Virus record (IMG/VR): IMGVR_UViG_3300035704_000006
Location: 1 to 64,000 of that record
DNA from: a virus
Length of the DNA stretch: 64,000 nt
Direction: 5' to 3' (one strand)
The notes under the pieces were generated by a model. It did not search any database and had not been told where the DNA came from. It saw nothing but the letters and a program-made list of their open reading frames with translations. Positions 21,355 through 50,497 of this stretch are shown here, piece by piece. The position numbers and the translations under genes were made by a program. Within the stretch, counting starts at the first letter, position 1. Every line of letters begins with the position of its first letter.

Positions 21355-21534
21355 TCACCACCATTCGTAGTCTCCTCGTCTTGTTCTTTTCCTGCCGCCA
21401 GGGGGCTTGTCTATCTCCCTGGCTGCCCGGCGCGCTATGGCAGCGCCTTTCTTGTCTCCGTTTCTTTCCCTGATCTTTGCCACCTGTCTCCAGGTATCCC
21501 GGATATCCCGGCGGCTTACCCAGTTTCTAGCCAT
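21355..21534 (-). CDS. Small basic protein (59 aa)
   Basis: ATG 21534 lies within the last codons of the polymerase gene (8-base overlap), and the frame runs to TGA at 21355-21357. The product is very basic (WVSRRDIRDTWRQVAKIRERNGDKKGAAIARRAAREIDK, then GGRKRTRRGD), suggesting DNA or RNA binding. No family is recognised. The tight coupling to the polymerase gene hints at a role with it. Confidence 0.5.
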   Translation of the reverse strand: MARNWVSRRDIRDTWRQVAKIRERNGDKKGAAIARRAAREIDKPPGGRKRTRRGDYEWW

Positions 21535-23743
21535 CGGCGATTACCCACATGCGGTCGACGCGGATGGCGGCGCCGAAGCCGCGGACGGCGCGGCCGGTAA
21601 TCAGGATGCCGTCGCTGCCGGGCACTATTTCCGCGACCTGGCGGGCGAACTTGCGGTACTGGAACCGGCCGATGCGCAGGTAGACCTCTCCGGCGCCGTC
21701 GTCGTAGCACTTGAGGGTGACGCTGCGGGTCAGGTGCGGTGACTTGATCCCGGTCATGTCCGGGTTCCCGGCCGCCCTCTCGTCTTCGGCCAGGTCCCTG
21801 TACGCCACGTCACGGATCAGCCCGCACCAGGTGACCTTCTTCCTGTCCTCGATCGCAAGGAGGCTCTGGCTGTCGCAGTCAGGCAGAGGAAGCTTCTGGC
21901 TTACGACGATGGCCTTCCGGACGCTGGCAATAAACCGCCCGGCCTTGTGAATCCCGAAAGGATCGTCGCTGTTCGCGAACTCCTGCATTTTCCGGACGGT
22001 TACCTGGCCGACTCCCTTGACCCTCAGCAGGTCACCCCAGCTTTCGAATGGCTGCCGGTCGTGCTCGTCGCACAGGGCGTGAGACATTACCGAGCCGATG
22101 CCGGGAACCTGGATGAACCCGGGAGTGATCACGTCGCCGCGGAGGTGCCAGGTGATATGGCCGCAGTCATACCTGGGCTTGCCGATCCGGAACCCGTGCG
22201 CCTCGGCGTCCCTGATCAGCAGCGCGACTCGCTCCTTGTCATCAGACGGATGGCATTTCTGCAAGCTGGCGGTAAAGAACTCGATCGGGTAATGCTGCTT
22301 CAGGTACATGCACCAGAGCGCGAGCTTGGCATAACTGACCGAGTGCGCGGTATTGAATGCGTAAGCGCTGGCCTTGGACATCGAGTGCCAGATCTTCAGC
22401 GCTTCTTCGCGCCGGATCTTGTGAATCTTCTCCGCGCCCTTGGCGAACGGCTCGAAGAAAGAATTGAACTGAGATTCTCCCAGTTTCTTGGCGACAATCT
22501 TCCGGATCTTGTTGGCCTGATCGAAGCTGAGCCCGCCGACCTGCATGGCCACCAGGATGATCTGCTCCTGGTAGATGATGACGCCTCGGGTGCCTGCTGT
22601 GATCTCCTGCATGGGCACGGGCATCTTACGGCGGGATTCCCGGTCATTCGCCACGTACCTGGGCGCCTCATTCAGGGCACCCGGACGTGACAAAGCTACA
22701 ATGTCGGCTAGCTCCATGAAAGTACGAGGCTGGACAGCCAGTGAAATTCCCCGGGTTGCCCGGCCGTCGAACTGGAATATCCCGGTCACGTCATCCGAGC
22801 GGAAACCCTCCATTGACTTCTTGTCCGTATCCGGGACCGCATAAAGGTCGGTCAGCTCGATGCCGGCCAGGTGGCAGGCATGAGCAATCATTCCCATGGT
22901 GGTCAGGCCCAGGAAATCAGCCTTCAGCAGGCCCAGGTACTCAGCGTCGTACTTATCCAGGCTCAGCACCCGAAGGTTTCTCTTGCGGTCACCCGTGCCG
23001 GAGGAGACGCTGTAGAGCGCCGCGCACGCCGTCAGGGGCTGAGTGGAGATAATGAGCCCGGCCGCGTGGACAGAAGGCGATTTCATCTGGCCTTCGAGGC
23101 GGAGAGCGTCAGCCAGGTCAGGGAAACGCTCGAAAGCATCCTGCACCTGGGGGAAGAGGCCGATGGTGTCTTCCAGCGTATTCCAGCGGCGGTCGTCCCC
23201 GTCCCCCCGGTCGACTACCAGGTCAGCAACAGCCTGCGTGATCCCGCGGCCGATCGAGTGAGCTGATCCGATGGCCTGGAGAGCTGCCCGGCCGCCGAAC
23301 CGGACATGGTTGGCCACGTTGCCGACGTTTACCTGGCCGTACTTGTTCTCCAGGTACACCCTGACCTCGTCGCGCCGTTCATCGTCGAAGTCCAGGTCGA
23401 TATCGGGAATGTCCGATCGGTTCGGATCGAGAAACCGTTCGAGCATCATGGCCGGGTATTCAATCGGATCGATCTCAGTGATCCAGAGGACATAGCAGAC
23501 CAGGGAAGCGGCAGCAGAGCCGCGGGCCGGTCCAACTGCTATTTTCTGGCGCTTGGCCCAGCGAACTGCATCACTCGTGATCAGGAAGAAATTAGTGAAG
23601 CCCTTCTCCCTGATCATTTTCATCTCACGGGCAATGCGCCTGAAATGCTTCTTGCTGACTGCTCCTCTTTTCTCCATTCCCTGCTGGACCCAGAATTTGA
23701 GGAGCCTGTAAGAATCATCTGCCAGGGAATCTATCAGGTCCAT
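21527..23743 (-). CDS. dnaE: DNA polymerase III alpha, polymerase half (738 aa)
   Basis: This is the catalytic part of a C-family replicative polymerase. It has GPARGSAAASLV (about residue 71) and the paired catalytic aspartates in IPDIDLDFDD (residues 114-120), then fingers and the helix-hairpin-helix-like segment (LLRVKGVGQVTVRKMQEF). The PHP part is encoded by the separate upstream gene (23734-24669). ATG 23743 has GGAGG ahead and overlaps that gene's stop by 10 bases in a different frame. With the PHP protein it would rebuild a full-length alpha subunit of about 1,050 residues. Confidence 0.88.
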   Translation of the reverse strand: MDLIDSLADDSYRLLKFWVQQGMEKRGAVSKKHFRRIAREMKMIREKGFTNFFLITSDAVRWAKRQKIAVGPARGSAAASLVCYVLWITEIDPIEYPAMMLERFLDPNRSDIPDIDLDFDDERRDEVRVYLENKYGQVNVGNVANHVRFGGRAALQAIGSAHSIGRGITQAVADLVVDRGDGDDRRWNTLEDTIGLFPQVQDAFERFPDLADALRLEGQMKSPSVHAAGLIISTQPLTACAALYSVSSGTGDRKRNLRVLSLDKYDAEYLGLLKADFLGLTTMGMIAHACHLAGIELTDLYAVPDTDKKSMEGFRSDDVTGIFQFDGRATRGISLAVQPRTFMELADIVALSRPGALNEAPRYVANDRESRRKMPVPMQEITAGTRGVIIYQEQIILVAMQVGGLSFDQANKIRKIVAKKLGESQFNSFFEPFAKGAEKIHKIRREEALKIWHSMSKASAYAFNTAHSVSYAKLALWCMYLKQHYPIEFFTASLQKCHPSDDKERVALLIRDAEAHGFRIGKPRYDCGHITWHLRGDVITPGFIQVPGIGSVMSHALCDEHDRQPFESWGDLLRVKGVGQVTVRKMQEFANSDDPFGIHKAGRFIASVRKAIVVSQKLPLPDCDSQSLLAIEDRKKVTWCGLIRDVAYRDLAEDERAAGNPDMTGIKSPHLTRSVTLKCYDDGAGEVYLRIGRFQYRKFARQVAEIVPGSDGILITGRAVRGFGAAIRVDRMWVIADG

Positions 23744-24669
23744 GGATTCCAGTCCTCCTCAGTCGCAGGGAATTTCAGGGGAGGAGCTTTCGGCAAGCGC
23801 ACGTTGCAGCGCTCGGCTAGTTCAAGCGTGTTATCGATTGCCTCCTGTGCAGCATCCGGCGACAAGCCTGTCTTGTAGAGAGACATGAACAACTCATCCC
23901 TGGTTTCCGGATACGTCAGGCGCACATCGTATTCCCAGGTCTGCTCCTGGCGGTCAGTAGTTACCCCGCCGCGCCCGGTGGCGTGGAGAAGGACTTGCAT
24001 GGCGTTGTTATCGGGATACGGGTAATGCACGTCCCGGGTCGCTATGAGCGGGATTCCAAGTCGCCGAGCCAGAAATTCGTAGCAGGGATTGATTGCGCGG
24101 GTCTTGTCCAGATCAGGGAAAGCCTGAACCTCCAGAAAGTACCGATCTCCGAATAGATCACGGAACTGTCCGGCAGTTTCCTCGGCAGCACGAAGATCAG
24201 GCGCGTGATCTTCGCGTCCCTTGCCGCCCACGAGATCGCAAGCGAGCTTACTTCCAGTGCAGCCGGAGAGCACAGCAATCCCGTCTGAGTGATCCGCGAG
24301 CGAGCGCCCGGAAATTGTCGCTTCATAGTAGAAATCCTCTCCCCAGGATTGAGTCACCATTTCCATCAGGTTCGAGTAGCCGACCTGATCCATCGCCAGC
24401 AAGCCCAGGTGCCAGCGCGGCTTGATCTTGTCCGCAATGAAATCACCGGGCGCCGTGTATGCTTCGAGCCCGTAAATCGGCTTGATCCCTGCCTTGTCGC
24501 ACGCCTGCTCCAGCCGGGCGTGCGAGGAGACATTCCCGTGCTCGGTCAGGGCCAGCGAATTCATGCCAAGCTCAGCGGCTCTCGCCACGTGGGCGTCAGG
24601 CATGGCATAGCCGTCAAGGTAAGAGAAAGTGGAATGGGTATGCAGGCTTGCCCACCAGCCGTCAGCCAT
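23734..24669 (-). CDS. DNA polymerase III alpha, PHP-domain half (311 aa)
   Basis: The protein is the N-terminal PHP domain of a bacterial DnaE: SLHTHSTFSYLDG (H10, H12), LALTEHGNVSS, IYGLEAY, and later ATRDVHY all match PHP metal-binding strands. It ends (EEDWNPWT) just where the polymerase palm begins in single-chain DnaE. PHP domains can carry 3'-5' proofreading, so this piece may supply it. It is translated just ahead of the polymerase half. Confidence 0.88.
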   Translation of the reverse strand: MADGWWASLHTHSTFSYLDGYAMPDAHVARAAELGMNSLALTEHGNVSSHARLEQACDKAGIKPIYGLEAYTAPGDFIADKIKPRWHLGLLAMDQVGYSNLMEMVTQSWGEDFYYEATISGRSLADHSDGIAVLSGCTGSKLACDLVGGKGREDHAPDLRAAEETAGQFRDLFGDRYFLEVQAFPDLDKTRAINPCYEFLARRLGIPLIATRDVHYPYPDNNAMQVLLHATGRGGVTTDRQEQTWEYDVRLTYPETRDELFMSLYKTGLSPDAAQEAIDNTLELAERCNVRLPKAPPLKFPATEEDWNPWT

Positions 24670-25038: not shown

Positions 25039-25638
25039 CTAAAATCCTTTCAGCAATTCAGCGAATGACTTGATGATGCGAGGGAAATCGGCTCGGGCTT
25101 CGGCGTCCCTCAATGCGGCGGAAGGATGCCAGCAGATCATCACGCGGGGAGCGTCAGGGTGTTCCTCGTCGGTGATTACCTCTCCTGCTTTCCGCGCGAT
25201 CGGGACTGCCTGGCCGAATATCGCCTTGGCCGCCGTCTTCCCGTACGCCAGGACGGCGATCGGCTTCCCGGAATCCCTGGTGACAAGGCCAAGCTCGGTC
25301 ATCAGGTAATTCCGGGAGCACATGATCTCATCGTGATCAGGCGTCCGGTTCTTTCTCGGCCGGTATTTCACCGCGTTAGTAATCCAAAGAGTCCAGGGAT
25401 CGATTCCCGCCTCATTCAGGTGACGCCGGAGGAACTGACCGGAAATGCCGACGAAAGGACTGCCCAGGGCGTCCTCCTGTGCTCCGGGCGCCTCTCCGAC
25501 TATGACTCCCCGAGGGGGAACATTGCCTGTGCCGTGAACCAGGGAGGGCTTCCGCATCCCGTATTCCTTGATGAGATCCTGGAGCGCTGGCTCATTGCCG
25601 TAGTTCTCGTAGATCTTCTCAAGCGCTTTCGTGAACAT
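25039..25638 (-). CDS. Uracil-DNA glycosylase superfamily protein (199 aa)
   Basis: The motif VGEAPGAQEDALGSPFVGISGQFLRRHL (about 47-74) is the nucleotide-pocket signature of family 4/5 uracil-DNA glycosylases, and CWHPSA (about 170) fits the C-terminal HPS motif. Family 4 enzymes have four Cys for an iron-sulfur cluster; this one has only two Cys in all, so it may be a cluster-free variant. It would remove uracil from phage DNA. It overlaps the methyltransferase gene by 20 bases. Confidence 0.8.
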   Translation of the reverse strand: MFTKALEKIYENYGNEPALQDLIKEYGMRKPSLVHGTGNVPPRGVIVGEAPGAQEDALGSPFVGISGQFLRRHLNEAGIDPWTLWITNAVKYRPRKNRTPDHDEIMCSRNYLMTELGLVTRDSGKPIAVLAYGKTAAKAIFGQAVPIARKAGEVITDEEHPDAPRVMICWHPSAALRDAEARADFPRIIKSFAELLKGF

Positions 25639-26731
25639 GCCCGAGCCCCTCCTCTTTCTCGTGCAGCCTCCGGTGATAAGCGCGGTACACGATCTCGACG
25701 GCCTTCGAGATCGTTCCGGGAAGCCGGGTCTGCCCGGCCAGGTGCTCGTGATGACGCCTGGTGAAATGCCTGGCGAAAGCCCTGGAGTCCATCTCTTCGG
25801 CAGAGATTACCGTGACTATTTCTTCGTCTTCATTTCCTTTTCCGTCCACGATTCCTCCGGGGAAGCAGATAGCGGTGAGAAGAAGCCGGATCCCGAACGC
25901 CATCTGATCCGGGAAAACGCCGTTGCCGATGAGCTTCAGGTGATCAGTCCGGGTAAGCCCGGGGACATCGGTTACCCATCCGGCGGGCAGCCCCATCATC
26001 CATTCCGGAAAGCGAGCGGCCAGCCTGGGCTTTCCTCCCCTGCCTGGCTCAACAGGAGCCGGGTAATCACCGAATATGGCCGCCCACCGGTCGACAGCAG
26101 CCTGGTATTTTCCCCAGCCTTTCCCCTCGATCGTCATTACTCCCGGAAGAATGCCCGGCATCAGCGGCGTGACGGAGAGATGCTCGACCTGGTCGGCAAG
26201 CGTCGGCCCGTGACCGCCCGCGCGGCGCTTGTCCGGTGGCTGGCTGCCTCCGTTGATGGCGAGCTGAGCAGTCGGGGTAACCAGGAGATCCTGACGCTTC
26301 TCGGTCAGCCTGGCGCCGGGGAGGAGGCCCAGGACGGCTCCGGTGAGCATGGTGTCGCCGCGGGTGCGGTGCTGGTTCGGTGATCCGTGGCGGGCCTCGC
26401 CCGCCACGATGGTAGGCAGGAGATCGGTGATGACCTCGGGCAGGGGCTTATCGGAACCGGTGCGGATCCGGCCGTCCGATCTCGGACGGCCGATGGGCTT
26501 AGTCGGCCCTTTCCAGTCCCGCCGGGTCGGGGTCGGAAGGCCATGCGAGGATGACGACGCGCTCCCTTTTGTGCGGGGCACCCCGGTCGGAAGCTCGTAC
26601 GCAATCCCACTGCGCGTCATACCCGATGCCGGCCAGGTCCCCGAGTACAGCACCGAGTGCCCGCACGGTCCTGTCCGGGTCGTTTCCCATGCAGCCTCGG
26701 CAGTACTCCAGGCCGCTATCCGCTTTAGCAC
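25619..26731 (-). CDS. DNA cytosine-5 methyltransferase, C-terminal half (370 aa)
   Basis: The region SGTWPASGMTRSGIAYELPT and SSSSHGLPTPTRRDWKG match, from memory, a recurring actinophage methyltransferase C-terminal segment. The end carries PEWMMGLPAGWV and the motif X-like KLIGNGVFPDQMA. Together these are the target-recognition and closing parts of a C5-methyltransferase whose catalytic half is the upstream gene. The two share 233 bases in different frames, both conserved-looking. The true start within the overlap is uncertain. Confidence 0.7.
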   Translation of the reverse strand: MLKRIAAWSTAEAAWETTRTGPCGHSVLYSGTWPASGMTRSGIAYELPTGVPRTKGSASSSSHGLPTPTRRDWKGPTKPIGRPRSDGRIRTGSDKPLPEVITDLLPTIVAGEARHGSPNQHRTRGDTMLTGAVLGLLPGARLTEKRQDLLVTPTAQLAINGGSQPPDKRRAGGHGPTLADQVEHLSVTPLMPGILPGVMTIEGKGWGKYQAAVDRWAAIFGDYPAPVEPGRGGKPRLAARFPEWMMGLPAGWVTDVPGLTRTDHLKLIGNGVFPDQMAFGIRLLLTAICFPGGIVDGKGNEDEEIVTVISAEEMDSRAFARHFTRRHHEHLAGQTRLPGTISKAVEIVYRAYHRRLHEKEEGLGHVHESA

Positions 26732-27080
26732 TGGTCAGCCCTCTGACATTCTCGATGACAACTAGGTCGGGACGCAGAACCTTGATGGCCCGGAAGAAGT
26801 ATCTCCAGACACTGGATTTCTTTCCGGACAGCCCGGTCCTGTCCCCGGCGCAGGAAACGTTCTGGCAGGAGAACCCGCCGCACAGGATGTCCGGGCGCTC
26901 GATGTTTTTCCACCGGACCTGAGAGATATCCCCGAGATTAGGGATGCCGGGGAAATGGTGCTCAAGCAGCACGGACGCAGCGGGATCATTGTCCGCGATC
27001 CAGATAAGGTCGCCGCCGAAAACCTCCTGGACAGCCATGTCCAGGGCGCCTGTGCCGGTGCACACGGAGGCAATCGTCAT
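26499..27080 (-). CDS. DNA cytosine-5 methyltransferase, catalytic half (193 aa)
   Basis: The SAM-binding start SVCTGTGALDMAV (residues 5-17), a GGFSCQNVS loop (68-76), ENVRG (110-114) and APHKRERVVIL (168-178) correspond to motifs I, IV, VI and VIII of C5-methyltransferases. The catalytic loop is usually PCQ; here it is SCQ, with the nucleophile Cys kept. Motifs IX and X are in the next gene. The pair likely methylates cytosines in phage DNA against host restriction. Preceded by a leader copy (27093-27104). Confidence 0.82.
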   Translation of the reverse strand: MTIASVCTGTGALDMAVQEVFGGDLIWIADNDPAASVLLEHHFPGIPNLGDISQVRWKNIERPDILCGGFSCQNVSCAGDRTGLSGKKSSVWRYFFRAIKVLRPDLVVIENVRGLTSAKADSGLEYCRGCMGNDPDRTVRALGAVLGDLAGIGYDAQWDCVRASDRGAPHKRERVVILAWPSDPDPAGLERAD

Positions 27081-42909: not shown

Positions 42910-43509
42910 CTATGCCTCCTGCGCCACGCGGGCCGAGATGACGTTCAGCGTGAATCCCGAGCCGGTGAACGCGAACGCCAGTGCCATGTCTCCTCCCGAG
43001 GGGCCTGATGCGCCGCCTCCGAGTCCGCTGGTCGTATGAGTGACCGAAGAATAGACAGCGGTTGCCGCGGTGCTTCCCGCCGTGCGCCACCAGAGCTTCA
43101 TGTCGACGACGGTTTCGCTGACGCCGTCCCAGTCGATAATCACGTCAATTGACCAGGCTGCGTTACTGGCTCCTGACCAGAGCCCGGCGGCCGGAATGTC
43201 AATTTCCCCTATCTGGGTCCCTCCCGTGCCCTGCCAGAAGGTAAAGAAGCTTACTCCGGTCGGAGCACTGCCTCCCGAGCTGAAATTTCCCCTGGCATCG
43301 GCTTTCCACCGGGAGCCTGCCTGGATTAGCTGGGAGGGAACAGTGTCTTTGCTGAGGAGCTTGGTTCCGGTGGTGCTGAATGAGGGCTTGCTGACATCAG
43401 CCAGGTTGCATAGCCGGCCCCATTCGGCGGCGAAGTTAATCTCATAGCGTGCGAAAAGCCGGTTGAGCTTTCTCCAGGCTGCGGTCAGCGTTCCGGCCGG
43501 GCTGCTCAT
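42910..43509 (-). CDS. Minor tail / carbohydrate-binding-like protein (199 aa)
   Basis: ATG 43509 overlaps the stop of the long upstream gene (ATGA). The body alternates strands as in a lectin or jelly-roll domain (TGVSFFTFWQGTGGTQIGEIDIPAAGLWSGASNAAWSIDVIIDW ... VVDMKLWWRTAGS ... MALAFAFTGSGFTLNVISARV). It may contact host surface sugars. No family is named with confidence. Confidence 0.55.
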   Translation of the reverse strand: MSSPAGTLTAAWRKLNRLFARYEINFAAEWGRLCNLADVSKPSFSTTGTKLLSKDTVPSQLIQAGSRWKADARGNFSSGGSAPTGVSFFTFWQGTGGTQIGEIDIPAAGLWSGASNAAWSIDVIIDWDGVSETVVDMKLWWRTAGSTAATAVYSSVTHTTSGLGGGASGPSGGDMALAFAFTGSGFTLNVISARVAQEA

Positions 43510-46500
43510 ATAATTGAATCCAGGTAGAACTGCGGGTAATAAGCGGCGCTGATCCCGGGTGGCCCTTCCACGCAATAGCAGAAGAGCAGGTTATCCCCGG
43601 GGTCGACGGTGAGAGGGCCTCCGCTGATCGTCAGGGGGCCTTCGGGAGGTCCCGGCAGTGCCAGGACTGAGAATGCTGATCCGCGGTCGCTTGCGCTGCC
43701 GAGCACGCGGCCTAGGTCTGCGTGCAGATCGGGCTCGTCAATCCAGATATTCTCGAAGTCCCCGTCGTTCGTATTGACGATGACTGTCTGCCCGAGAGTA
43801 TCGAGGGCTATGACATCGAAATACCGGTCTGTGGTTACCGTGTCCGTCACGGTAGCCTTGAACTGAGCCTGGGTATTGTCCGGTGCGATGTCGGCGACGG
43901 GAAGGGTAATTGCTCCTACCTCGACGATTCCGTTAACGATATCGGTGCTCGGGGTGAAAGTCCGGGACACTGTCTGGGTTACCGGATTAGAGCTTCCGCT
44001 GAAAGGATACTGGTAGAAAGTCACAGTCACCTTGCGGGAATCAGTCGGGGAACTGAAGGAGTCAGCTATCAGCAGGATCGTGTAAGTACTGGTGAAAAGA
44101 GCGTTGACCCCGGAGATAAGCGACGAGAACGTATAGAAATGAGTTCCGTCCGGAGTGTCGCTGCCTCCTCCTACGGAGACATAAGGCACCAGTGAGGGAG
44201 ATGCATTCTGTCCCGGCCGGTGAGCGATCAGGGTTGAGAAAGATGCCAGGGCAGGCTGCTGGAACTGAAAGGAAACAGGAGCGTGAACGGATCCGAGGAT
44301 TCCGTCCAGGTTATAGACCGCGCCGCGTGTCCCCGCCACCAGTTGAGTCGATTCTGGTTTCGCGACGATTTCCGTCATCAGGTAGTTCTGGTAGCTGAGC
44401 TTTCCCAGTGTGGTCGCGATTACGATCTCGTACTTCTTGACGGCGCTGTAAATAAAACCGCTCTTGACCTGCTTGACGGGAATGGATACGTAGTTCCATT
44501 TCGGCGTTGCTATGTAAAGGCAGCCGTCAACCTTCTGGCTCTGGCCGAACTGGAGCGTATTGCCGTGCGAGTCGGTGATCTGGACGATGAAGGTGACTAC
44601 CTGATTAGCCGGCGAGTTGAGCGGGACCACGAAGGCGCACCAGAAGGCGATCGAGCTGAGGGGCTCGATGTCAGCCACGCTCCCGAGGGTCTTCGTGTAT
44701 TCGGCGAATCCCAGGTTTCCCTGGGTCCACTGCGCCGCGTTCGTGCTCCCCGGCGCAGTGGAAAATGTGGTCTTGACCCACTGAGGACCGCTTACCGAAG
44801 AGAAACTGTCGACGACGACCGGACTCGGGGGCGCGGAGGCTCCGCTGATCGGAGCGGCGAATCCGAGAAGCTTCTGGACCGATGACCTGCCGTAAGGGAG
44901 CGCCTGGAATGTGATCTTGAGGAATGCGGTTACCTGGTTGCTGGCGGCCAGGTCATAGGTGGGCTCACTCGGCTCTGCGCGGAAGCAGTCCCAGACAAGC
45001 GGGGTGATCACGTCGGAGCGAGTCCACAGGAGCGTCCAGGATGGCTGGTCGATCAGGGCCATGAGGTATTCCTCGGCAACCGCCACTTCCTGGCGGGTTG
45101 ACCCGAAGATGGTCAGGGGCATCACGAAGGTGCGGTTGCTGGCCCGGGTACCGTACGGCATCTCCCCGTCCGTGACCAGGGACTCCGACTGGTCTACCAC
45201 CGGCTGCGGAGATCCGAAGCTGAAGTCAGGATCGGTGAAGATCCCCGCTCCCGGCGCACCGGGAATGCAGCCGTAGGTCGGGAGGTTACCCAGCAGCTCG
45301 ATTGCCCCGGCCAGGATCAGGCTGTCTGTTCCTGTTCCGGCTGGAGAGGGAGGGGCGATAGGGCCGGAAGGAGTTACGACGGGCAGCGTGACGACGATCA
45401 GCGCCCATTTCGTCGAGGCGCTGATCGTGCCAGATGCGATGACAGGGTTCGGGGTGATGACCGTCTGGGCGGCCATGCCGGAGATAGCGTTAGTGCTTTG
45501 CTGAACCCCTCCGGCGATCGAGACCCAGGGATTAGCCCAGGCGATGTCCGCGCCGCTGGCTCCGTTGGTGACGAACGCCACGCAGGCTTCAGCCGGGGTC
45601 TCCAGCACTCCGGTGAGCGCGACGGGAGAGTTCGAGCCAGCGCTGAACGCGGATGCTACCTGGTCAGGGAACGCGCCTACGAGGATTCCGGGGATTCCCG
45701 CAGCAATGATGTTCTTGGCGTTCGTCCCGGTAGTCGAGAAATTTACCGTGATGGTATCTGTCCCGGCGACCAGGGCAATTGTCGGCTCATCCGGGCCGCT
45801 CCCCGAAGTGGCCACGAAAACAGACATCGCGAATTCAGTCGTGATGGATTCCGCCAGGATGTAGGAGTTCCCCTGGCTGTCTTCAACAGAAGTGACAGTC
45901 TCGGAGGTAACCACCACTGATGCGCCCACGACAATGGCATCACCCTGGCTGGTGCTGTTCGCGACGGGCACTACGACGGTCTTCGAGCCGGCTGCGGACG
46001 CGTCGGTGGCGATCAGGTAGGTAGCAGTGGCCGGGGATCCTCCGGACTGCTGGTTGATCAGCGACAACTCAGCGACTACGTCATCGCTGTCCGCGCCGGG
46101 GAAAGGGACCCCGTTGGTTGCGTTGAAGTAAGGAAAGAAACAGTAGAGGTTATTAGCGAGAGCATAGGCCCAGGCATCGGAGAACCACTGCGCCGGAGTG
46201 CCGGTCCAGGTTATTCCTCCGGTCAGGTCCGTCGTATAATTACATTCCGTGACGCCGATGACCGGAGATGTAGTAACCGAGCGAACCTGCGTAACGGCGG
46301 GAGTGATGCTGTCGACCGCATCGGTAGCGGTCGTGTTCGGATACCAGTCCAAGAAATACCCGTCGAGATTTACCCCTCCGTTAGCGACCGAGCATACCCA
46401 CTGAGACAGGGGGTAATGCGAAGACGCGGTGTAGGCGGTGAATGTCTCGAAGATCTGCACGTACATCGCGCCCGCTGCCGCATTGGCATGAAAGATGGGA

Positions 46501-46844
46501 TATACATGCGCGTGCATTGCGATAAGCGTATTGGCGCTGACTCCGGCGGAATGCTCTCCCTCGTGCCAGAGCGTGACGGCAGCGCCCGCGGGAACCAGCG
46601 CGAAGTAAGCGGCAAGCGCCGCGTCGAGCGCTCCGGAAAGTACGGCCGAGATATCCGGCTTGAGTGAGACAACCGGGAAAGTTACTCCCGAGGGAATCGT
46701 GTTCCCTCCGCCTGGCCAGGCGGAGGGGATTCCCTGGGAGGGGGTCAGGTATGCACGCCAGCCTGCGACTGAGGCGACGCCCAGGGCCTCGCAGAATTCT
46801 TCGTAAGTGGCCTCGGCATCAATGCCGAATATCGGAGCGGTCAT
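43506..46844 (-). CDS. Large tail-tip protein with an N-terminal hydrolase-like domain (1112 aa)
   Basis: Residues 1-270 read like a TIM-barrel glycosidase (WHEGEHSAGVSANTLIAMHAHVYPIF, GYFLDWYPN, PVIGVTECNYTT, NNLYCFFPYFN), with catalytic-type E and D in WHEGEH and FLDWYP. The middle is beta-rich Ser/Thr. The C-terminal half resembles a distal tail (Dit-like) domain (MPYGTRASNRTFVMPLTIFGSTRQEVAVAEEYLMALID ... WTLLWTRSD). It may therefore cut cell-wall or surface glycans while anchoring the tail tip. It carries one near copy of the AEARVA word (AEACVA). Confidence 0.6.
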   Translation of the reverse strand: MTAPIFGIDAEATYEEFCEALGVASVAGWRAYLTPSQGIPSAWPGGGNTIPSGVTFPVVSLKPDISAVLSGALDAALAAYFALVPAGAAVTLWHEGEHSAGVSANTLIAMHAHVYPIFHANAAAGAMYVQIFETFTAYTASSHYPLSQWVCSVANGGVNLDGYFLDWYPNTTATDAVDSITPAVTQVRSVTTSPVIGVTECNYTTDLTGGITWTGTPAQWFSDAWAYALANNLYCFFPYFNATNGVPFPGADSDDVVAELSLINQQSGGSPATATYLIATDASAAGSKTVVVPVANSTSQGDAIVVGASVVVTSETVTSVEDSQGNSYILAESITTEFAMSVFVATSGSGPDEPTIALVAGTDTITVNFSTTGTNAKNIIAAGIPGILVGAFPDQVASAFSAGSNSPVALTGVLETPAEACVAFVTNGASGADIAWANPWVSIAGGVQQSTNAISGMAAQTVITPNPVIASGTISASTKWALIVVTLPVVTPSGPIAPPSPAGTGTDSLILAGAIELLGNLPTYGCIPGAPGAGIFTDPDFSFGSPQPVVDQSESLVTDGEMPYGTRASNRTFVMPLTIFGSTRQEVAVAEEYLMALIDQPSWTLLWTRSDVITPLVWDCFRAEPSEPTYDLAASNQVTAFLKITFQALPYGRSSVQKLLGFAAPISGASAPPSPVVVDSFSSVSGPQWVKTTFSTAPGSTNAAQWTQGNLGFAEYTKTLGSVADIEPLSSIAFWCAFVVPLNSPANQVVTFIVQITDSHGNTLQFGQSQKVDGCLYIATPKWNYVSIPVKQVKSGFIYSAVKKYEIVIATTLGKLSYQNYLMTEIVAKPESTQLVAGTRGAVYNLDGILGSVHAPVSFQFQQPALASFSTLIAHRPGQNASPSLVPYVSVGGGSDTPDGTHFYTFSSLISGVNALFTSTYTILLIADSFSSPTDSRKVTVTFYQYPFSGSSNPVTQTVSRTFTPSTDIVNGIVEVGAITLPVADIAPDNTQAQFKATVTDTVTTDRYFDVIALDTLGQTVIVNTNDGDFENIWIDEPDLHADLGRVLGSASDRGSAFSVLALPGPPEGPLTISGGPLTVDPGDNLLFCYCVEGPPGISAAYYPQFYLDSII

Positions 46845-49800
46845 GTATTCCTTGTGGCTGTCGCGAAACGTCCGGCTGATGCCGCATTCCGGGCGGCTCC
46901 GTCCAGTCCGGCCATGACCGCATTCCCGGTAGCGCGGCCGGTAGCCCTGGGATTACTCCGGAGCAGGCTGATGATCTCGCCGCCCTGTTTCCTGGTCACG
47001 TGCTGATTCTCGGAGTCGCGGATTGAGTGCAGGAAAGCCTCGATCTGGTTCACGTCAGCGCGGCTGAGGGTGCCGGACCCGGCGACTCCCTCCAGGGTGG
47101 AGATTCCCAGCGCGACAGACTTGTCGAGCGCCGAGAGGCCGCCTCCGCCGATATTGAGCCTGCCGTGCAGGGCCTTGATCATCTCCCGGGCTATCTCATC
47201 GCCGAGTTCCCTCATGCGCTTCTTTATCTCTTCTTTGTCATGATCGAGGGAAGAAAGCCAGCCCTTGGTGATGCTCTGCCCGTAGGTAATGTCGGCGGTG
47301 CGCTGCCCGATCGCAGTTTCCTCGCGGCCTATCTTCCTCTCGTCCCGGTTAAGCTCGCCGATCAGCTTTCCCCCGCCGGAAAGGATAGCCTCGGCGTAAG
47401 CGGTCCCGTCTTCAGGCCCGAGAGCGATCGCCTGCTCGATCAGGACCTTGGAAACTCCCTGGTGATGCAATCGCCCGATAACCTCGAAGAACTTGTGAAG
47501 CTGCATCACCTTTTCTTCGAGAGCGGTCTTTATCCCGGCTCCGGTCGGCTCCTGGACTCCCTGCTTATTTGTCCTGAAGGAAAGGGAAGAAAGCCCGGAA
47601 AAGTTCTGGAGCGACTGGATTTCCTGGCTGGAGGCCTGGCGCATGTTCGCGATCGTGGTATTGATCTTGTCCTGGACCTTGGCCATCTCGGTGAGAACAT
47701 TCGTCTGATTGCCGATGATCTTGCCGAGTTCCTTCTCGTGCGGACCCGTGTAGTACTTTTCCAGGTCTTCGAGCGCAAGTTTTCCCGAGGCACGGATCTG
47801 GGCAGGCGTGCGGCTTGCGGATGCCTCGAATTCCCGGGCAACTGTATCGGCGGCCGAAGATCCTCCGCTTCGCACGTCAGTCGCGGAACTGCCGAGCAGT
47901 CCCACGAATACCTGGAAGGTATCTCCTCCTGCCATCTGGGAGATATTTGCCCCGTACCCGGCGATGCCGCCCTGGGCGAAATGCCGGGGCCTGGAACTTC
48001 CGCCGGAACGGCCCGAAGAGTAATAGGAATTGGCCGCGTGAATGTAGTCCTCGCCGACCGCCCTGGTCCATTCCGGGACCATGATCGCTTCGCCTTTAGA
48101 GGCCAGGACATGCTCAGTGTCCCGGCCTGGCGCGTATCCGGGGATGACCATTCCCTTGGCCGACTGGGTGAAGAGATGGGATACCGTGCCGGAGATCGGC
48201 GCCTGGCCTCCGGTCTGGGTGGTATTAACATTCACGTCAATACTGACGGTCTTATTATGCAGCGCATCAATCGCTGTATTCAGCTCGGCGATGATCTTCC
48301 GGGCCTCTCCGCCGTGAACCCCGAGCGCATCGAGCGTGTTCCGCAGGGCTACCAGGGGCGCCGCAGCCTGCGAGGAGGAACCGGTGATCTGCTTGATGGC
48401 CTCGGCGTTGGCAATGGCATCGGAGACCGTCTGGGACATCTGGGTGCCCGCGGTGCGCTGCGCTGCGGTGAGCGTGCCGACCGAGTCAGCGGAGAGGCCG
48501 AGATCGGTTTTCAGGGTGACCATGTCATTGTCAAGCTGATTGGTCGTATTAATCATGTTCAGGGTCGGGTTGAACAAGTCGCCTTCTGCCGCGCCCAGGG
48601 CCTGAACGCGCGTGGCCAGCGATCCGGCGAGCCCGTTCGCTATTTCCATCTGCTGACTGAATGCCTGAGTCGAGGACGCTGCCCCTAGTTCCTTATTGGC
48701 GTATGCCTCTATTTTTGCCATCGCCTTATTGCCGGCTTCGCCCTGAGCCTGGAGAGCATTAGCGCTCACTCCGGATGCCTTGGCTAGCTGAAGGGACTGG
48801 ATAGAATCCAGTCCGTACATGTGCCCGAGGATTTGCAGCCTGGACGTAAGATTGGCGTATTTCAGCGTGGCCTGCTCTATCAGCGCATTGTCTTCCTTGA
48901 CAGCAGGACCGATAAACGATCCTTCTCCCTGCGGAAGGTTCGCTATCGCCTCATCTTCTTTCCTCAGGGTCTGAAGCTGCTGAATATGCTCGGCGTACCC
49001 GGCGATATTGAACCTGACTGCCTTGTCCTGCTTGACCAGGGCGTCATTTTCCTGCTCGGTAACTTCTTTCAGGTTTCCTGATGCGTCAGTGAGCTTGACG
49101 GCCTCGTAAGCCAGGAATCCCAGTCCGGCGGCAAGCGCTCCTATGATGACGAGGGGATCAGAAAGAATTCCGCTGATCATGGACCCGACAAAGCCCTTGT
49201 TCAGGGAGAATCCCTTGGACTCAGTCTCGGCGGCTCCCATCGCGACGGCAAGTTTCTCTGCGCTCGCTGCCTCCGCATCCATGGCGCCGGAAAAGGCAAG
49301 CGCTCCGGCTGTTGCCTGATCCTGGCTGAATCCCATCTCCAGGAGTTTCGCGTTGGCGGCAGCCGTGCGCTCCTCAGTTGTTCCCTCGGTGATCCCCAGG
49401 GCTTCCTGAGCGCGGGCGAGAGCGGCTGAGTCCGCGGTCGCCTTGACGATCGCGCTGTCCAGCAGGCTTGCCCCGGTGAGCGGGCCGGCCTGCCCGAAGA
49501 CAGCAGCCCGTTCCTGGGCAGCGGCCTGGGTGTTGATGGCATTGGAGAGGGCGATGGCTCCGGCCGCTGCCTCGGCATCAGACAGGCCCAGCGATACGAG
49601 GCGGTCCCTGAGAGCCCCGGCCGCCGCGTCGGCGTTGTCCAGGGACATCCCCAGGAAGTTCTCCGCCTGCTGAAGCTGGTTGGCGTCGTAGGCCGCCTGG
49701 ACCATGGCCTCGTCGAGCTTGAGCACGCCCGTGTACTTGCTCTGGTCGGCAACGAAGCTCTCGGCTTCGCCGCCGGTAATCAGGGACAGCGCCCCGTTGC

Positions 49801-50497
49801 CGCCCCTGCCGACAACCAGCGCGGCACCCTGCTCCAGTTCCAGGAGGGCATCGCGGACCTGATCCCATTCGGCAGGGAGCCGCTGAAGCGTGTCCTCGTA
49901 CCCGGCCCAGGAAGCAGCAGCCTCGTCAGCCGCGTCTGCCTGCGCCATCAGGGCCGCGATCTGGGCGTCAAGGCCCGGGTTGGCCGCGAGGATATCGGCC
50001 TGGAGCTGGCGTTCCCGGTCAGTCAGGGGAATGAGCGCATCCCCGGCTGCCGTGGCGGCTGCGGCAAGGCTGCTGATCGCCGCGCTGGCATCAGCCGCTG
50101 AACTGCCCGCCTCTTCCGTGGCGGCAGCGGCCTCGCGGGATGATGCGGTCAGGGTGTCCGCGGATGAGGCAGCGGCGTCAAGCGCGGCAGTCAGGTCTTC
50201 GGCTTCGGTGATCGCCGGCTCGGCGTCCAGGACGGGTTCCAGGGTCAGATCCCGGGCGTTCAGCTCACTGAGCCTTTCGTCCAGTCCCTCGATCTCCGCT
50301 TCGGCCGGCCCGGTGTCAGCCTCGGGGATCAGCTCGATGTCGTCTGTGGCGGCCAGGAACGCGGTCCTGAACGCCTCCCCGTACTTCTCCCCCAGGGCTT
50401 CGGCGCCGGGAAGGATTTCCTCCTCTGCCTTGGCATTCCAGCCTTCGGCATTAGGGACGACGGAAACGCCGACGCTGCCTACGACGCTGCCGCTCAT
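46841..50497 (-). CDS. Tape measure protein (1218 aa)
   Basis: Very long, Ala-rich and helical, with a hydrophobic span (about 455-480, DPLVIIGALAAGLGFLAYEAVKL), Gly/Gln segments, a helical C-terminus, and a position directly after the frameshifted chaperone, as in siphophages. It sets tail length (its 1,218 residues predict a tail near 180 nm by the usual 1.5 angstrom-per-residue rule) and is ejected during DNA entry. The ATGA overlap with the chaperone gene couples the two. Confidence 0.9.
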   Translation of the reverse strand: MSGSVVGSVGVSVVPNAEGWNAKAEEEILPGAEALGEKYGEAFRTAFLAATDDIELIPEADTGPAEAEIEGLDERLSELNARDLTLEPVLDAEPAITEAEDLTAALDAAASSADTLTASSREAAAATEEAGSSAADASAAISSLAAAATAAGDALIPLTDRERQLQADILAANPGLDAQIAALMAQADAADEAAASWAGYEDTLQRLPAEWDQVRDALLELEQGAALVVGRGGNGALSLITGGEAESFVADQSKYTGVLKLDEAMVQAAYDANQLQQAENFLGMSLDNADAAAGALRDRLVSLGLSDAEAAAGAIALSNAINTQAAAQERAAVFGQAGPLTGASLLDSAIVKATADSAALARAQEALGITEGTTEERTAAANAKLLEMGFSQDQATAGALAFSGAMDAEAASAEKLAVAMGAAETESKGFSLNKGFVGSMISGILSDPLVIIGALAAGLGFLAYEAVKLTDASGNLKEVTEQENDALVKQDKAVRFNIAGYAEHIQQLQTLRKEDEAIANLPQGEGSFIGPAVKEDNALIEQATLKYANLTSRLQILGHMYGLDSIQSLQLAKASGVSANALQAQGEAGNKAMAKIEAYANKELGAASSTQAFSQQMEIANGLAGSLATRVQALGAAEGDLFNPTLNMINTTNQLDNDMVTLKTDLGLSADSVGTLTAAQRTAGTQMSQTVSDAIANAEAIKQITGSSSQAAAPLVALRNTLDALGVHGGEARKIIAELNTAIDALHNKTVSIDVNVNTTQTGGQAPISGTVSHLFTQSAKGMVIPGYAPGRDTEHVLASKGEAIMVPEWTRAVGEDYIHAANSYYSSGRSGGSSRPRHFAQGGIAGYGANISQMAGGDTFQVFVGLLGSSATDVRSGGSSAADTVAREFEASASRTPAQIRASGKLALEDLEKYYTGPHEKELGKIIGNQTNVLTEMAKVQDKINTTIANMRQASSQEIQSLQNFSGLSSLSFRTNKQGVQEPTGAGIKTALEEKVMQLHKFFEVIGRLHHQGVSKVLIEQAIALGPEDGTAYAEAILSGGGKLIGELNRDERKIGREETAIGQRTADITYGQSITKGWLSSLDHDKEEIKKRMRELGDEIAREMIKALHGRLNIGGGGLSALDKSVALGISTLEGVAGSGTLSRADVNQIEAFLHSIRDSENQHVTRKQGGEIISLLRSNPRATGRATGNAVMAGLDGAARNAASAGRFATATRNT

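What the first reader, a model, noticed from the sequence alone, without database searches (positions are those of the whole stretch)
21527..24669. Replicative DNA polymerase III alpha split between PHP and polymerase domains
The PHP half (23734-24669) and the catalytic half (21527-23743) meet in a 10-base out-of-frame overlap, with a separate GGAGG site for the second. The break falls at the domain boundary, and both parts look intact. Translation of a two-chain polymerase, or a frameshift to a fusion, are both possible.
Basis: seen in the sequence. Interest (0 to 1): 0.62.

Follow-up and report, generated by a model that had tools for sequence, protein, structure and literature searches.

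The report
Phage DNA polymerase made as two chains
This phage appears to make its bacterial-type replication polymerase as two proteins, an exonuclease-like domain and the catalytic body, from overlapping genes; other phages of actinobacteria do the same and this has been noted in print, but the repeated splitting and a tail found only on split forms seem not to have been described.

Summary
On the minus strand a 311-aa PHP chain (24669-23734) and a 738-aa polymerase chain (23743-21527) overlap by ATGGACCTGA. The break is at the PHP/Pol3 boundary. All nine PHP metal ligands (HHDHEHCDH) and the three catalytic Asp are present. AGGAGG lies 10 nt before the second ATG, and no -1 slippery heptamer was found near the overlap. 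It is not an assembly error: the same split is annotated in isolated phages (TinyMiny, Crestdrop, Wollypog, Aikoy, Nilo, Terapin), mostly with other genes between the halves. Jacobs-Sera et al. 2020 already note two Pol III-alpha genes in cluster EF. Of 44 distinct split loci, 12 open the polymerase frame at the tail Trp codon, as here. Split and fused forms interleave on the tree (about 10 changes; a single split clade is rejected), and the nearest relative found is fused. All 44 split PHP chains end in a tail with an invariant Trp (32 read D-x-x-P-W), a pattern found in none of 106 distinct fused linkers. Best reading: a two-chain polymerase made by coupled translation, with a probably active PHP exonuclease. 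It is a new member of a known kind; the tail's function is open.

The parts
23734..24669 (-). PHP chain, 311 aa, with intact nine-residue metal site HHDHEHCDH
   Evidence: PF02811 5e-34; ligands; AlphaFold2 pLDDT 91.8, pTM 0.89; Foldseek Taq Pol III alpha TM 0.80
21527..23743 (-). Polymerase chain, 738 aa: palm and finger domains plus a C-terminal part aligned to the C-terminus of fused relatives; catalytic D114, D116, D276
   Evidence: PF07733 4e-59, PF17657 9e-31; triad; Taq 2hpi 384-956; phrog_11165 4.8e-218
23734..23743 (-). 10-base overlap ATGGACCTGA: start of the polymerase gene and stop of the PHP gene
23754..23759 (-). AGGAGG ribosome-binding site for the polymerase chain, 10 nt before its ATG, inside the PHP gene
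23740..23760 (-). C-terminal tail of the PHP chain, EEDWNPW (residues 304-310), of the kind found only in split relatives
   Evidence: W310 invariant in 44 split chains; motif in 0 of 106 distinct fused linkers

Best explanation
Both ORFs are genes and are translated as separate chains from one message. Ribosomes finish the PHP chain at TGA and start the polymerase chain at the ATG that begins 7 nt before that stop, helped by the AGGAGG inside the PHP gene. The two chains then assemble without a covalent link into the usual Pol III alpha shape, and the PHP chain most likely supplies 3'-5' proofreading. Shown: two intact ORFs, start signals, intact active sites, recurrence of the split, no DnaQ-type exonuclease in the 67-kb record. 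Inferred: two chains in the cell, their association, the PHP exonuclease activity, and a role of the PHP tail in the complex.
For: Complete domains on both sides of the break and intact active-site residues. AGGAGG and overlapping start/stop. Same break in isolated phages with 10 to 730 bp between the halves and in 43 other distinct loci; in 11 of these the polymerase frame also opens at the tail Trp codon. PHP chain predicted to fold alone; the isolated E. coli PHP domain has been solved as a chimera (4gx8, 4gx9). A tethered model of split relative L131 has the overall Pol III alpha fold (TM 0.80 by target to E. coli 2hnh). No PF00929 exonuclease in the record.
Against: No protein data. SD spacing of 10 nt is on the long side. 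The tethered model leans on an alignment containing fused relatives and is another phage's protein. The record may be incomplete, so absence of DnaQ is weak.
Confidence: 0.88

Rival explanations
1. A -1 ribosomal frameshift near the overlap makes some or all of the product as a fused single chain.
For: The two frames overlap and are related by -1; the nearest relative found, L103, is fused.
Against: No X XXY YYZ heptamer in the last 12 PHP codons. The polymerase frame is open for only five codons before its ATG. Several split relatives have genes between the halves.
Confidence: 0.04
2. Sequencing or assembly error has broken a single fused gene.
For: The contig is an environmental virus record; the closest relative is fused.
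Against: The PHP chain ends in the tail typical of split relatives and absent from fused linkers, and a ribosome-binding site sits at the expected place; a random indel would not make these. Cultured phages show the same break.
Confidence: 0.03
3. The conserved Trp tail of split PHP chains is only a by-product of the next gene's start codon, which overlaps it in the -1 frame (NTG-G), and has no role in the protein.
For: The base before the tail TGG is A or G in 38 of 44 loci against 46% (88 of 192) of other Trp codons in these genes; an ORF of 55 aa or more opens there in 32 of 44.
Against: 12 of 44 keep the tail with no such ORF or with a non-start codon. The Pro, the Asp and the nearly constant spacing after the Y-P element are not needed for a start codon. 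In the Krampus group the motif is internal, is coded CCC-TGG, and about 40 residues follow it.
Confidence: 0.35

Closest known systems
Two-gene DnaE of Microbacterium cluster EF phages (Krampus, AnnaSerena; here TinyMiny gp61/gp63, Crestdrop gp56/gp57)
   Same: Same break between PHP and polymerase, same gene order, intact active sites; noted in PMC7302621 and PMC13080520
   Different: Here the genes overlap by 10 bp and the PHP chain ends right after the PW; in EF phages PHP has a ~40-aa extension, and a gene (TinyMiny) or 10 bp (Crestdrop) lies between. Identity about 51% PHP, 36-40% Pol
Two-gene DnaE of Wollypog, Onyinyevirus (Aikoy), Papyrusvirus (Nilo) and Terapin
   Same: Same break and same D-x-x-P-W tail
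   Different: One or two genes between the halves, an HNH endonuclease gene among them in Wollypog
Fused phage DnaE (PHTowN, Sadboi, Butterscotch, IMG/VR L103)
   Same: Same domains in the same order, same active sites; L103 is the nearest relative found
   Different: One chain; linker without the PW tail
Split gene 43 (B-family polymerase) of Aeromonas phages 25 and 44RR
   Same: Replicative phage polymerase made from two genes; the phage 25 chains co-purify and are active (PMC2988022)
   Different: Unrelated polymerase family; the break has a seg endonuclease gene or an untranslated sequence in it
Cyanobacterial DnaE split by an intein
   Same: DnaE in two genes (PMC3919608)
   Different: Those halves are joined by trans-splicing; here there is no room for intein sequence

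Membership tests
C-family DNA polymerase (DnaE-type Pol III alpha) | PHP, palm and finger domains in this order | tested here: met
   in two chains
C-family DNA polymerase (DnaE-type Pol III alpha) | Three catalytic aspartates | tested here: met
   D114, D116, D276
C-family DNA polymerase (DnaE-type Pol III alpha) | Polymerase activity | not testable with these tools
   no assay
Active PHP exonuclease of DnaE | Nine-residue metal site HHDHEH[C/H]DH | tested here: met
   motif as defined in PMC12926913
Active PHP exonuclease of DnaE | 3'-5' exonuclease activity | not testable with these tools
   no assay
Two-gene phage DnaE (cluster EF kind) | Break between PHP and palm with both chains complete | tested here: met
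Two-gene phage DnaE (cluster EF kind) | C-terminal D-x-x-P-W tail on the PHP chain | tested here: met
   EEDWNPW-T; W310 invariant in 44; absent from fused linkers
Intein-split DnaE | N- and C-intein sequence at the break | tested here: not met
   chains end and begin within 10 nt and align to the domain ends
Programmed -1 frameshift gene | Slippery heptamer in the window open in both frames | tested here: not met

The most novel reading that the evidence does not exclude
Phage DnaE has changed between one and two chains many times at one joint, and the two-chain form depends on a short acidic D-L/W-x-P-W tail on the PHP chain that docks on the complex in place of the covalent linker, so that proofreading domain and polymerase work as separate subunits.
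Probability: 0.3. Interest if true: 0.55.

Novelty: new member of a known kind. Interest (0 to 1): 0.33.

Why it matters
It is a clear natural example of a replicative polymerase whose proofreading-type domain is a separate protein, with fused relatives available for comparison. If the tail is a docking element it shows a simple way for a polymerase to change between one and two chains, and it gives a direct handle for testing whether PHP proofreading works in trans.

Tried and rejected
Programmed frameshift: no slippery site, and several relatives have genes between the halves. Assembly error: same break and tail in cultured phages. Split intein: no room. All split forms as one clade: rejected on a 39-row tree (p-AU 5.7e-41). 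Direction of change: 10 changes with a fused root; 11 if only fissions, 22 if only fusions from a split root. The shared tail argues that split forms are homologous (old fission plus re-fusions, or spread of the junction by recombination), so direction is left open. Tail as pure start-codon shadow: explains only part (12 of 44 exceptions). The single-sequence scan of viral contigs found nothing; the profile scans did. A paper search for mycobacteriophage plus PHP domain found nothing.

Full report
What is there. On the minus strand two ORFs follow each other: 24669-23734 (311 aa) and 23743-21527 (738 aa). They overlap by ten bases, ATGGACCTGA, the second being in the -1 frame. The first is a PHP domain (PF02811, 5e-34). 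The second holds the Pol III alpha palm and finger domains (PF07733, PF17657) and a further C-terminal part. By sequence they match Taq Pol III alpha (2hpi) at residues 7-289 and 384-956. The window lies in a 67,455-bp virus record, a tailed phage with terminase, portal, capsid and integrase genes.

Both halves look functional. All nine PHP metal ligands are present, HHDHEHCDH, the pattern used in PMC12926913 to call a PHP site active. Polymerase aspartates 114, 116 and 276 are kept in every relative aligned. AlphaFold2 folds the PHP chain alone with mean pLDDT 91.8 and pTM 0.89; the best structural match is Taq Pol III alpha (TM 0.80). The E. coli PHP domain has been solved apart from the rest of alpha, as an epsilon chimera (4gx8, 4gx9). 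No DnaQ-type exonuclease (PF00929) and no beta clamp (PF00712) were found in the record, so PHP is the only proofreader candidate identified; the record may be incomplete.

How the second chain starts. The polymerase frame has a stop 15 nt upstream of its ATG, and homology begins at residues 9-14, so the ATG at 23743 is the start. AGGAGG lies 10 nt before it, inside the PHP gene, and the PHP stop codon begins 7 nt after the A of that ATG. This is an ordinary arrangement for coupled translation (established knowledge). No slippery heptamer is present in the last 12 PHP codons.

Relatives. In annotated phages the same two pieces are separate genes in TinyMiny (gp61, gp63), Crestdrop (gp56, gp57, 10-bp gap), Wollypog (gp56, gp59, a small gene and an HNH gene between), Aikoy (gp83, gp85), Nilo (gp74, gp76) and Terapin (gp65, gp67). 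They are one gene in PHTowN, Sadboi, Predator, Butterscotch, Foxboro, Darwin, Madruga and others. Profile scans of IMG/VR, followed by sorting of ORFs, gave 44 distinct split PHP chains, window included, and 106 distinct fused linkers. The profiles were built from split members, so these numbers do not estimate prevalence. In 12 of the 44, window included, the polymerase frame opens at the start codon across the tail Trp codon, as here. [quoted passage not shown] PHROGs has a 782-position family for the catalytic part alone (phrog_11165) beside the whole protein (phrog_405).

History. On a tree of 122 PHP+Pol sequences split and fused forms interleave: 10 changes, at least 8 forced by well-supported branches. 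One clade of split forms is rejected on a 39-row subset (p-AU 5.7e-41). The window's sister on the tree, L103, is fused; it is 65% identical in PHP and 48% in Pol. Parsimony needs 11 fissions if only fissions are allowed, or 22 fusions from a split root. Recombination could also move the junction, so direction is unresolved.

A tail found only in split forms. All 44 split PHP chains carry, at nearly constant spacing after the last conserved element, a short stretch with an invariant Trp: 32 read D-x-x-P-W, the rest D/E-L-x-W or similar (the count for L006 is taken, where its tail reads DWEPW with an ATG, because the pattern caught an earlier Trp). None of 106 distinct fused linkers has the pattern. 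The base before the tail TGG is A or G in 38 of 44 (23 ATG, 15 GTG) against 46% of other Trp codons in these genes, and in 32 of 44 an ORF of 55 aa or more opens there, so an overlapping start codon explains part of the conservation. It does not explain the 12 loci that keep the tail without such an ORF, nor the Pro, the Asp and the spacing. In the isolated PHP model the tail has moderate confidence (block means 80, 79, 69). In a read-through model of split relative L131, where translated intergenic sequence tethers the two chains, the tail blocks are 91 and 77 (the second includes residues past the stop), the tether is disordered, and the whole matches E. coli Pol III alpha (TM 0.80 by target, 2hnh). 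This is compatible with docking of the tail but does not show it: the proteins and alignments differ between the two models.

Verdict. The finding is real and the domain-boundary reading is right. Two chains by coupled translation is by far the likeliest outcome. It belongs to a kind already noted in the literature, so it is less surprising than first scored. The repeated splitting and the split-specific tail are the parts that deserve a closer look.

Noticed in passing
window 25619-27080 (-): A C5 cytosine methyltransferase lies in two overlapping ORFs, 26499-27080 (motifs up to VIII) and 25619-26731 (C-terminal part), while relative Shauna1 gp67 has it in one frame; yet the +1 frame over the motif VIII region is protein-like in both phages (SGHSVLYSGTWPASGMTRSGIAYELPT / SGHSVPYSETLPTSGMTRNGRLLPLP), which hints at dual coding or a frameshift.
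   Followed up: partly
L006 4495-5430 (Mycobacterium phage Nilo gp74): Annotated as DNA polymerase III sliding clamp but is the PHP chain of a two-gene DnaE.
   Followed up: yes
L005 2627-3628 (Mycobacterium phage Aikoy gp83): The annotated PHP chain lacks the first metal-binding His and its N-terminus does not align, although the rest is well conserved; a wrong start or a frame error near the upstream HNH gene is possible.
   Followed up: no
L156 6181-9372, L018 4552-8592, L123: Polymerase ORFs of relatives much longer than usual, in L156 with about 270 extra residues inside the finger/C-terminal region; possible inteins or other inserts.
   Followed up: no
window 43506-46844 and 46841-50497 (-): Two very long ORFs (1112 and 1218 aa) between the integrase and the head genes with no PHROGs match.
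   Followed up: no
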